Assembly (NCBI RefSeq): GCF_018282095.1
Contig: NZ_CP074127.1
Coordinates: 310,001-374,000, forward strand
Length of the DNA stretch: 64,000 bases
Source: Pseudovibrio brasiliensis
GTDB taxonomy: Bacteria; Pseudomonadota; Alphaproteobacteria; Rhizobiales; Stappiaceae
Direction of reading: 5' to 3'
Shown: positions 53,520 to 63,963 of the stretch, one piece after another
Position numbering within the stretch: the stretch's first letter is position 1
How the letters are laid out: the number at the start of each line of letters is the position of its first letter
Made by a program: the position numbers and the translations under genes
The notes under the pieces: model-generated
The model's input: the letters and a program-made list of their open reading frames with translations, nothing else
What the model was told of the DNA's origin: nothing
The model's database searches: none

Positions 53520-53553
53520 GGCCCTAGTTTTCCTCCTAAGAGAATTTGATCAT

Positions 53554-53573
53554 AAATGATTGCGCAATCATTT
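53554..53573. promoter_or_regulatory. Perfect 20-bp palindrome, candidate GntR (LacI-family) operator
   Basis: AAATGATTGC/GCAATCATTT is fully symmetric around a central CG, the form expected for a LacI-family dimer. It sits between gntK and gntR, 57 bases before the gntR ATG, so it can control both. Confidence 0.75.
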
Positions 53574-61467: not shown

Positions 61468-62736
61468 CTAGCCCGCATGCGCCAACTCTGGTGGCTGAAA
61501 AGCCTCTGCAAAGATATCTGTCAGGCGAACTGGTGGTTTGAGTGCTGTCGCATTGCTGAGTAGCTCCCTTACTTGAGGTGATGAAGTCGGATCAAAACGA
61601 ACAATCGCATTCGGTCCGCCAGTCAGTGTGATGGATTGTACCTTTATGGGCGATTGCGCGTAGGTGCCAAGGAGCAGTCGGAGCTCCTTGGCATTCAGTA
61701 ATTCGTATGGCTTGGGCGTGGTCAGGTGAACTCTGTCGGTCTCGATGCGGCGCAGGACAACTGGCGTTTCCATGTTGGTTCTGAGGCGTACAAGCCCTGC
61801 TATGTCTGTGTCTATAAGCGCTGAGGTCACCTCCTGTGCGCCGAAAAGGTGATCGTACTCATGTGTGGGGTAGTGGCGCCGGAGCAGTTTCAGCTCATCC
61901 GGTGTCAGCGAAGCTGCGCCCTGGATTGGGCCATGAAGGAAGTGCTCCAACTCTTTTGCGCTCCAACGATTACCGTCATAAGCCGTCGACACTTTGCTTA
62001 GCTTTTGAAAGCTGTCGAACTCATATTCCATATAGTATTTGAAGAGATTGCGCTCATCGGGAGTATCGCCATAGACTCTCTGATAGTCGGCATGCATCTC
62101 AGTGAAGTTGAGATAAGCCCCAGTTGCTGTTGTGCCATTCACGTAGTCGAACGCATCAATTACTTCGTGGCTTAAGCGCCTGAAAAGCAGAAGTGCCTCG
62201 TAGAAATCCATGTGCTTTGGAGTGCAGGCCATGACGAGATCGTGGATGCTCAAATCCTCTCTTGCGACCTGAAACATGTATTTCAGCAAAGCATGGATGA
62301 GTGAGCCTTCCTGAGAGCGGTAGTCCGGGTGAACTGTGAGTGAGGAGGCTTCAGCGATGCGTCGGTCCCACTTCGTGATGTGATCCAGAGAGAAGATCTG
62401 CTCAACAGGCAGTTCCTCCTGAGACTTCACGATAACCGTTGTGGTTGCGATGACAGTTTCACCCTGTTTTGCGATGAGAGTGTAGCTGGATGGGAGAATG
62501 TAGTAGGGCGTGAACCTGTAGCCCGTACCATCCTCCTTCATGTAGCCCACTTGAGTATAAGAGTCGTAGAGTAACTTGCAGACCTGAGTGAGCTCTTCAG
62601 GTGTATCTGCTTGTTTGAAAATGACGCCTGCAGGAGGGCTGTTTTGCAGCTTTACCCTTCTCCGGAAAATGGAAAACTTTCGCGATCTGGCCGCTTCATG
62701 ATTTGCGCAGTGCTGATTGGTATTGATCATGCTCAA
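61468..62736 (-). CDS. FeeM-like N-acyl amino acid synthase (GNAT fold) with C-terminal domain
   Basis: 422 aa. Residues about 35-250 resemble the FeeM/autoinducer-synthase branch of GNAT acyltransferases: LTQVCKLLYDSYTQVGYM, IAEASSLTVHPDYRSQEGSLIHALL, HDLVMACTPKHMDFYEALLLFRR. These join a fatty acyl group, usually from acyl-ACP, to an amino acid. Residues 290-400 form a second domain of beta character (LVRLRTNMETPVVLRRIE, IKVQSITLTGGPNAIVRF), perhaps PilZ-like. It is alone, divergent from a ThiF-like gene. The product could be a signalling or membrane lipid; not proven. Confidence 0.7.
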   Translation of the reverse strand: MSMINTNQHCANHEAARSRKFSIFRRRVKLQNSPPAGVIFKQADTPEELTQVCKLLYDSYTQVGYMKEDGTGYRFTPYYILPSSYTLIAKQGETVIATTTVIVKSQEELPVEQIFSLDHITKWDRRIAEASSLTVHPDYRSQEGSLIHALLKYMFQVAREDLSIHDLVMACTPKHMDFYEALLLFRRLSHEVIDAFDYVNGTTATGAYLNFTEMHADYQRVYGDTPDERNLFKYYMEYEFDSFQKLSKVSTAYDGNRWSAKELEHFLHGPIQGAASLTPDELKLLRRHYPTHEYDHLFGAQEVTSALIDTDIAGLVRLRTNMETPVVLRRIETDRVHLTTPKPYELLNAKELRLLLGTYAQSPIKVQSITLTGGPNAIVRFDPTSSPQVRELLSNATALKPPVRLTDIFAEAFQPPELAHAG

Positions 62737-62835
62737 TCACCTTTACTTGAACAATCTCGCTTGTTGCAGAATAAAAATCGAAATTACCTAAAGTTATAAT
62801 TCTGCAATTCCTTGATGAATTTGAATAGAATAAAA

Positions 62836-62857
62836 ATAATATTAACGTTAATATTAT
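62836..62857. promoter_or_regulatory. Perfect 22-bp palindrome between FeeM-like and ThiF-like genes
   Basis: Half-site ATAATATTAAC mirrored as GTTAATATTAT, fully symmetric about CG at 62846-62847. It lies about 100 bases before the acyltransferase start and 18 bases before TTGACA (62876-62881), a -35 for the ThiF-like gene. Position fits an operator for both. Confidence 0.6.
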
Positions 62858-62998
62858 AATTAACATTGACAAATACTTGTTATGACAAAAATATGCTTAG
62901 TTGGATTGTGTTTTAAATTTAAGCGCAATCGATAAATTATATTACTGAGCGCGTTGAGCACTTGGATTGAATTTACGTTTTATTTGTGGAGGAAGGCA

Positions 62999-63901
62999 TT
63001 GACTGTTTTAGCTGCATCCCAAGTTCATGAGGTATCACCGGTCGTAAACACCGGATTTTCCTATGAAGCTGCATTTTCCAGAAACATCGGATGGGTCACT
63101 GAAGAGGAGCAACAACTGCTTCGAGGTAAGCGGGTTGCCATTGCCGGAATGGGTGGTGTCGGTGGCATCCATGCCGTCACGCTGGCGCGCCTGGGCATTG
63201 GCGCGTTCAGCGTGGCAGATTTTGATCACTTCGATATCGTTAACTTCAATCGCCAGATTGGTGCTACCGTCAGCACACTGCAGGAGCCGAAGGTTTCGGT
63301 GATGTCAGAGCAAGTGCGAAACATCAATCCGGAGGCGGATCTTCGTGTGTTTCCTGACGGCGTAACAGATGAGAATATCGATGCCTTCCTGGAAGGCGTG
63401 GACATGTTTGTCGATGGGTTCGATTTCTTCGTGCTTGGCATGCGACGCAAAGTGTTTGCGAAGTGTCGTGAGCTCGGTATCCCGGCTGTAACTGCCGCAC
63501 CACTTGGTATGGGGACTGCCTATCTATGCTTCACACCGGATGGCATGAGCTTTGAGGATTACTTCCAATTCGAAGGTGAAGACGAGCTGCATCAGTACTT
63601 CAAGTTCCTGCTCGGCCTCGCTCCAAGTGCGTTACATCGCCATTCACTGGTTGATACCTCCCAGTTGAACCTAAGTGAGGAGCGTGGCCCTTCTACAGCT
63701 GCCGGGTGTCAGTTGGCTGCTGGTGTTGTCGGTGCGCAGGCTGTGAAGCTGTTGCTTGGTCGTGGGCCTTTGAAGCCCGCCCCATGGTACCATCACTTTG
63801 ATGCCTACGAGGGTAAGTTCGTCACCAAACGCCTCCCTTCTGGAAATGGCAACTTCTTTCAAAAATTGAAGCTTAAGAAAACGATGAAGTTGTTTTCCTA
63901 G
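62999..63901 (+). CDS. E1/ThiF-like adenylyltransferase
   Basis: 300 aa from a TTG at 62999, chosen because GGAGGAAGG precedes it; the frame from 62954 lacks a ribosome site. The nucleotide site is IAGMGGVGGIHAVTLARLG with DFDHFDIVNFNRQ (Asp, Arg and Asn of the adenylation site). The later Cys in AKCRELGIPAVTAAPLG is near where E1 enzymes have their catalytic Cys. No CxxC zinc pairs as in MoeB/ThiF are seen. It should adenylate the C-terminus of a small protein or peptide, but no such partner gene is in the window. A strong terminator follows. Confidence 0.82.
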   Translation: MTVLAASQVHEVSPVVNTGFSYEAAFSRNIGWVTEEEQQLLRGKRVAIAGMGGVGGIHAVTLARLGIGAFSVADFDHFDIVNFNRQIGATVSTLQEPKVSVMSEQVRNINPEADLRVFPDGVTDENIDAFLEGVDMFVDGFDFFVLGMRRKVFAKCRELGIPAVTAAPLGMGTAYLCFTPDGMSFEDYFQFEGEDELHQYFKFLLGLAPSALHRHSLVDTSQLNLSEERGPSTAAGCQLAAGVVGAQAVKLLLGRGPLKPAPWYHHFDAYEGKFVTKRLPSGNGNFFQKLKLKKTMKLFS

Positions 63902-63924
63902 GAGCTGCACTCTGAGTTTTTCGT

Positions 63925-63963
63925 ACGCGCAGGATGAAACTTGTCCTGCGCGTCTTCTGTTTT
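63925..63963 (+). terminator. Intrinsic terminator after the ThiF-like gene
   Basis: ACGCGCAGGA (63925-63934) pairs with TCCTGCGCGT (63944-63953), then CTTCTGTTTT. The gene is therefore monocistronic. Confidence 0.88.

What the first reader, a model, noticed from the sequence alone, without database searches (positions are those of the whole stretch)
61468..63963. FeeM-like acyltransferase facing an E1/ThiF-like enzyme across a shared palindrome
A putative N-acyl amino acid synthase with an extra C-terminal domain and an E1-like adenylyltransferase lacking zinc CxxC pairs are divergent, with a perfect 22-bp palindrome between them and a terminator closing the ThiF unit. FeeM products are signalling or surfactant lipids, and E1-like enzymes activate C-terminal carboxylates. 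A joint pathway, such as acylation of a peptide or modification of an acyl-amino acid, is a real possibility and I know of no described system of this form.
Basis: inference. Interest (0 to 1): 0.72.

Follow-up and report, generated by a model that had tools for sequence, protein, structure and literature searches.

The report
N-acyl amino acid synthase–ThiF cyclase pair
Two facing genes in a marine Pseudovibrio bacterium probably make a fatty acid–amino acid lipid and then close its acid end into a reactive ring, a pathway already worked out in other bacteria, but here without the usual oxidising enzyme and with an unusual regulatory-looking extra domain.

Summary
[quoted passage not shown] 61468-62736, -) faces a ThiF/E1-like enzyme without CxxC pairs (start best placed at 62999, end 63901, +). 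Between them lies a perfect 22-bp palindrome (62836-62857) that occurs once in the genome and whose core is the best conserved intergenic stretch in seven Pseudovibrio species. The two families are functionally linked: the same 7 of 16 Pseudovibrio genomes carry both; 14 of 16 genomes with this ThiF subfamily in a 398-genome phylum sample have a FeeM-family gene within about 5 kb; and one Nitratidesulfovibrio protein fuses FeeM, ThiF and a nitroreductase. The system is, however, described: NAS + ThiF cyclase + flavin oxidase make acyl-oxazolones and N-acyl-dehydrotyrosines (OxzAB, TyzABC, TrzAS, NasY clusters). Most likely the synthase makes an N-acyl amino acid and ThiF adenylates and cyclises it to an oxazolone. 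What departs: no flavin oxidase at the locus or, by profile, anywhere in this genome, so the product should be the saturated azlactone; and the C-terminal domain is modelled as a PilZ fold without the c-di-GMP motif (NAS-PilZ fusions are published). Verdict: new variant of a known kind. No product was shown.

The parts
61468..62736 (-). [quoted passage not shown]
   Evidence: PF21926 E 5e-30, 104.8 bits vs cut-off 27; Foldseek best hits are FeeM 2g0b
62164..62583 (-). FeeM catalytic domain (residues 52-191), conserved Glu129 in RRIAEASSLTV aligned with the Glu of other NAS proteins
   Evidence: catalytic Glu role from PMC4897644
61537..61827 (-). PilZ-like beta-barrel domain (residues about 304-400), canonical c-di-GMP motifs absent
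   Evidence: AlphaFold model, pLDDT mostly 62-77 in this part; VIA Z 11.2 to BcsA 697-798; Foldseek to YcgR, CeSA, BcsA, VCA0042, MapZ PilZ domains; motifs absent
62737..62998 (.). shared divergent intergenic region, 74% A+T over its first 217 bases
62836..62857 (.). 22-bp perfect palindrome, probable binding site of an unknown dimeric regulator
   Evidence: core conserved in 7 Pseudovibrio species; single copy in the genome
62988..62996 (+). ribosome-binding site GGAGGAAGG before TTG 62999
   Evidence: sequence
62999..63901 (+). ThiF/E1-like adenylating cyclase, PRK08223 subfamily, 300 aa (open frame from 62954); no CxxC pairs; ATP-site residues R43, GxGGxGG 65-71, D89/D91, R100, K113, D154/D157 (numbered from 62954) kept
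63925..63953 (+). intrinsic terminator-like hairpin after thiF

Best explanation
The two genes form a small lipid pathway. The synthase joins a fatty acyl group (from acyl-ACP or acyl-CoA) to the amino group of an amino acid, probably aromatic. The ThiF-like enzyme then uses ATP to adenylate the free carboxylate, and the amide oxygen closes on it to give a 5(4H)-oxazolone (azlactone). Because no TyzC/OxzB-type flavin oxidase accompanies the pair, or was found in this genome, the product should stay saturated: a reactive azlactone that hydrolyses back, reacts with amines or alcohols, or is trapped by an unknown acceptor. The C-terminal PilZ-like domain probably controls the synthase through a partner protein rather than by canonical c-di-GMP binding. 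The palindrome is probably the operator through which one regulator controls both promoters. Shown here: protein families, linkage, conserved active-site residues, conserved unique palindrome, lack of a detectable oxidase. Inferred: substrates, cyclisation, product, regulation.
For: Pfam and NCBIfam assignments. NF011425/PRK14852 matches the synthase at model positions 29-230 and the ThiF protein at 312-588; its member in Nitratidesulfovibrio vulgaris is one 989-aa protein with FeeM, ThiF and nitroreductase domains. The same 7 of 16 Pseudovibrio genomes hold both genes, always divergent with the same neighbours where the contig allows. In the phylum sample 15 of 16 genomes with NF006077 have a FeeM-family hit against 101 of 398 overall, 14 of 16 within about 5 kb (statistics). 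The ThiF protein is 53-58% identical to ThiF proteins directly followed by, or fused to, a flavin oxidase, including a complete NAS-ThiF-oxidase operon in L065. Biochemistry of homologous systems: TyzA N-acylates Tyr/Phe and TyzB is an ATP-dependent cyclase; TrzS gives the cyclised, non-oxidised intermediate when O2 is limiting (PMC10404671, PMC12856293). No oxidase hit in this genome, G006 or G007 with a profile that does find oxidase-like proteins in ten other Pseudovibrio genomes.
Against: No product, substrate or expression data. OxzB, TyzB and TrzS sequences could not be fetched, so identity to the biochemically tested enzymes was not measured; the score against the Rv1355c (TrzS) model is far below its cut-off (78.5 of 476 bits). 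Many PRK08223-type proteins sit in PEP-CTERM-type loci without an oxidase, and in the stieleriacine, kyonggic and thalassotalic acid producers no oxazolone was seen, so ThiF may do something other than yield a free oxazolone. An oxidase too divergent for the profile, or one of the seven generic nitroreductases, could still serve.
Confidence: 0.68

Rival explanations
1. The pair makes 2,3-dehydro N-acyl amino acids or desaturated oxazolones as in the Tyz/Oxz/NasY systems, the oxidase step being supplied by an unlinked nitroreductase of the genome.
For: Seven PF00881 matches in the genome; clusters dispersed over the genome are known for Stieleria; the nearest ThiF homologues often sit beside an oxidase.
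Against: The oxidase profile found nothing in G000, G006, G007; PF00881 is a general family present in all 14 control genomes.
Confidence: 0.15
2. ThiF adenylates the N-acyl amino acid as an activated donor, and the acyl-aminoacyl group is passed to another molecule (a lipid head group, amine or protein) instead of being released as an oxazolone.
For: Oxidase-free NAS/ThiF pairs recur, notably in exosortase-type loci; ThiF-fold enzymes such as MccB and the ubiquitin E1s activate carboxylates for transfer; azlactones are acylating agents (general chemistry).
Against: No acceptor or transferase gene is conserved next to the pair apart from DUF2478; no direct evidence.
Confidence: 0.12
3. The two genes are unrelated neighbours that merely share a promoter region; ThiF belongs to cofactor or sulfur metabolism.
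For: General ThiF/MoeB fold.
Against: Identical presence in 7 of 16 genomes, family-wide linkage and a natural fusion; no CxxC pairs; other ThiF-family proteins exist in the genome.
Confidence: 0.03
4. ThiF is an E1 of an antiphage conjugation system (E1-E2 / Bil / Bub type).
For: Weak PADLOC E1-E2 matches, E 8e-14 at best, over about 130 residues of models of 430-600 residues.
Against: The NF006077 match is over 370 bits stronger; no E2, JAB or ubiquitin-like gene recognised among the neighbours.
Confidence: 0.02

Closest known systems
TyzABC (Mycobacterium tuberculosis Rv2336-Rv2338c), acyl-tyrazolone biosynthesis, PMC10404671
   Same: FeeM-fold N-acyltransferase on one strand, ThiF cyclase on the other
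   Different: Tyz has the flavin oxidase TyzC next to the cyclase; TyzA is 322 aa; no PilZ-like domain is described
OxzAB (Pseudoalteromonas rubra), as described in PMC10404671
   Same: acyltransferase plus ThiF domain acting on the acylated amino acid
   Different: OxzB is a ThiF-oxidase fusion; here ThiF stands alone and no oxidase was found
NasY clusters of Thalassotalea, Massilia and Stieleria (thalassotalic acids, kyonggic acids, stieleriacines), PMC12479983
   Same: NAS and ThiF genes side by side
   Different: those include a nitroreductase; in Massilia umbonata, which makes saturated products, ThiF is missing too, whereas here ThiF is kept without the oxidase
Nas343 and Nas354, metagenomic NAS-PilZ proteins, PMC4897644
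   Same: FeeM domain followed by a PilZ-like domain; catalytic Glu
   Different: no ThiF partner is mentioned there ('ThiF' not found in the text); here the c-di-GMP motifs are absent
PRK14852 (NF011425), Nitratidesulfovibrio vulgaris DVUL_RS15680
   Same: FeeM and PRK08223-type ThiF in one pathway
   Different: single 989-aa polypeptide with oxidase domain in an XrtA/PEP-CTERM locus

Membership tests
Acyl-oxazolone (Oxz/Tyz/Trz) pathway | FeeM-fold N-acyl amino acid synthase with catalytic Glu | tested here: met
   PF21926 104.8 bits; Foldseek to FeeM 2g0b; Glu129 aligned
Acyl-oxazolone (Oxz/Tyz/Trz) pathway | ThiF-like cyclase gene adjacent or fused | tested here: met
   Divergent neighbour in all seven Pseudovibrio genomes
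Acyl-oxazolone (Oxz/Tyz/Trz) pathway | Flavin-dependent oxidase (FDO-A, nitroreductase superfamily) adjacent or fused | tested here: not met
   None in the flanks and no profile hit in G000
Acyl-oxazolone (Oxz/Tyz/Trz) pathway | Oxazolone product | not testable with these tools
   Needs LC-MS with acetonitrile quench
N-acyl amino acid synthase with PilZ domain (Nas343/Nas354) | C-terminal PilZ fold | tested here: inconclusive
   Model and fold matches agree, but the model is of low to moderate confidence and sequence comparison gives nothing
N-acyl amino acid synthase with PilZ domain (Nas343/Nas354) | c-di-GMP motifs RxxxR and D/NxSxxG | tested here: not met
   Absent in the window protein; D/NxSxxG absent in all five aligned, RxxxR only in P. 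japonicus
Canonical ThiF/MoeB (sulfur carrier activation) | Zn-binding CxxC pairs | tested here: not met
   No CxxC
PRK08223 (NF006077) ThiF subfamily | Score over curated cut-off | tested here: met
   423.8 vs 266 bits
PEP-CTERM/exosortase-associated acyltransferase (TIGR03694) | Score over cut-off; exosortase in the genome | tested here: not met
   12.3 vs 111.95 bits; no PF09721 match in G000
E1-E2 antiphage systems | E1 with E2/JAB/ubiquitin-like partners | tested here: not met
   Weak partial matches only; no such neighbours recognised

The most novel reading that the evidence does not exclude
An oxidase-free, PilZ-equipped NAS/ThiF system that makes saturated azlactones, or uses them to hand an N-acyl-aminoacyl group to another molecule, under a dedicated palindrome-binding regulator and second-messenger-type control: a branch of the oxazolone family with a different end product.
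Probability: 0.35. Interest if true: 0.6.

Novelty: new variant of a known kind. Interest (0 to 1): 0.4.

Why it matters
Acyl-oxazolones are a recently recognised bacterial lipid class, and the role of the ThiF enzyme in related N-acyl tyrosine producers is called enigmatic (PMC12479983). A system that keeps synthase and ThiF but has no oxidase separates cyclisation from desaturation and makes the ThiF step testable alone. The PilZ-like domain would tie such a product to second-messenger or partner-protein control in host-associated marine bacteria.

Tried and rejected
Nitroreductase next to the pair: none. The 389-aa nitroreductase-like protein shared by most of these Pseudovibrio (L021) was considered as the missing oxidase: no BLAST similarity to the ThiF-linked oxidases and no profile hit in G000. 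Exosortase link: no exosortase in G000. PilZ by sequence: no Pfam hit, no PDB sequence hit to a PilZ protein, hhalign against two PilZ domains of the same genome gave 0.35% probability; only structure comparison supports it. Palindrome regulon: no second site. Tree of ThiF proteins: Pseudovibrio is one clade, but whether its oxidase was lost or never present cannot be read from it, since the label changes about six times and several forks are open. Plasmid relatives: no near match in PLSDB. The one genome-contig scan used a single-protein query and so reached only near relatives. No paper found on AclA, the best solved-structure match of the ThiF model. Antiphage E1 reading: only weak partial matches.

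Full report
Observation. The FeeM-like ORF runs 61468-62736 (-); ATG 62730 is the likely start. The ThiF ORF is open from 62954, but GGAGGAAGG at 62988-62996 and TTG at 62999 point to a 300-aa protein and a 262-bp intergenic region. The window lies on a 473-kb contig of a 6.03-Mb genome; close matches show that the genus is Pseudovibrio. Family matches are well over cut-off: PF21926 104.8 bits, PF00899 141.8 bits, NF006077/PRK08223 423.8 bits. There is no CxxC pair in the ThiF protein.

Palindrome. ATAATATTAACGTTAATATTAT (62836-62857) is the longest perfect palindrome in the window; one of 22 bp or more arose in 8 of 20,000 Markov copies of the intergenic region. In seven Pseudovibrio species the ATTAACGTTAAT core and the bases after it are the best conserved stretch of a region that otherwise drifts. 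TATTAACGTTAATA with up to one mismatch occurs only here in the genome. That fits a dedicated operator; no regulator gene was identified. TTGACA lies about nine bases downstream at 62866-62871 and is only partly conserved.

Functional link. ThiF and NAS occur in exactly the same 7 of 16 Pseudovibrio genomes. They are divergent, and share flanking genes where the contig reaches: DUF2478 on one side, an NMT1-like ABC transporter on the other. In 398 genomes of the phylum, 16 have NF006077; 15 of these have a FeeM-family hit against 101 of 398 overall, and 14 have one within about 5 kb, at 0.2 to 4.5 kb by the coordinates. Chance co-location on this scale is negligible, with the caveat that genomes are related and that several of the hits are weak FeeM matches to TIGR03694-type acyltransferases. 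NF011425 matches the synthase with its N-terminal part and the ThiF protein with its middle part. Its member in Nitratidesulfovibrio vulgaris is a single 989-aa protein with FeeM (43-198), ThiF (316-565) and nitroreductase domains; the separate synthase and oxidase genes of L065, which flank a ThiF gene, hit the same model at its two ends.

Known pathway. The published biochemistry matches. TyzA N-acylates Tyr/Phe, TyzB cyclises with ATP, TyzC desaturates; OxzA with the ThiF-oxidase fusion OxzB, and TrzA with TrzS, do the same kind of chemistry (PMC10404671, PMC12856293). NAS-ThiF-nitroreductase clusters accompany 2,3-dehydro N-acyl tyrosines in Thalassotalea, Massilia and Stieleria (PMC12479983).

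What differs. First, the oxidase. No oxidase gene lies next to the Pseudovibrio pair. A profile of seven ThiF-linked oxidases has no hit in G000, G006 or G007, all of which carry the pair, although it finds oxidase-like proteins in ten other Pseudovibrio genomes. TrzS under O2 limitation accumulates the cyclised, non-oxidised intermediate, and oxazolones are hydrolysed by acid and opened by alcohols. So the expected product is a saturated, reactive azlactone; this is inference. Oxidase-free NAS/ThiF loci recur elsewhere, mostly in PEP-CTERM-type contexts, but this genome has no exosortase.

Second, the C-terminal domain. The AlphaFold model is weak overall (mean pLDDT 44), probably because only five close sequences were used, but residues 310-390 reach about 62-77. 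This part aligns with BcsA residues 697-798, which by general knowledge is its PilZ domain (Z 11.2, rmsd 2.7 over 95 residues), and Foldseek lists PilZ domains of YcgR, CeSA, BcsA, VCA0042 and MapZ. Sequence methods do not see it, and RxxxR and D/NxSxxG are absent. NAS-PilZ proteins were reported in 2016 with proposed c-di-GMP control (PMC4897644), so the architecture is not new; the pairing with ThiF is not mentioned there. Between Pseudovibrio species this part is 40-55% identical, the NAS domain 68-85%, and ThiF 88-97%.

ThiF details. The model matches E. coli ThiF (1zfn, Z 21.0), MoeB (1jw9, Z 20.8) and AclA (9egb, Z 21.5). ATP-site residues aligned with E. coli ThiF are kept: the glycine-rich loop, ADFD, NxxRQ, PK, and VDGFD. 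In TrzS an Asp thought to contact ATP in this fold is needed for cyclisation. In the tree Pseudovibrio forms one clade (100/99) among oxidase-linked and oxidase-free relatives; loss versus original absence of the oxidase is not resolved.

Conclusion. [quoted passage not shown] It works like the acyl-oxazolone pathways but fails one of their defining features, the oxidase. It is filed as a new variant, not as a member, with moderate interest.

Noticed in passing
G000:C3:273394-273855 (L069 5972-6904, -): A second FeeM-family protein in the same genome, fused to a cyclic-nucleotide-binding domain (PF00027 E 4e-14), next to a putative methyltransferase gene; resembles cAMP-activated NasP as cited in PMC4897644.
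   Followed up: partly
L082 4742-7512 (G004, another Pseudovibrio): A ThiF-oxidase fusion of the Rv1355c/TrzS family (620 bits vs cut-off 476) beside a 240-aa possible acyltransferase without Pfam hit: a Trz-type oxazolone locus in an alphaproteobacterium.
   Followed up: partly
L079 3873-9028 (G010) and L080 4014-9175 (G002): A different five-gene cluster in other Pseudovibrio: a 313-319-aa protein without Pfam hit, a distant ThiF, a 400-aa protein without Pfam hit, a GNAT-like protein and an Acg-like flavin oxidase. Possibly another oxazolone-type pathway.
   Followed up: partly
L058, L059, L061, L062, L067: PRK08223-type ThiF genes in loci with PEP-CTERM-like, TPR or TIGR03694-like acyltransferase genes and no oxidase nearby: the NAS/ThiF pair seems to be part of some exosortase systems.
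   Followed up: partly
L029 6519-7783 (P. denitrificans JCM 12308): The NAS gene is split into two frames in this draft; other genes nearby on the contig are also split, so sequencing indels are likely.
   Followed up: partly
window 53554-53573: A second long perfect palindrome, 20 bp, AAATGATTGCGCAATCATTT, near the start of the ORF at 53546.
   Followed up: no
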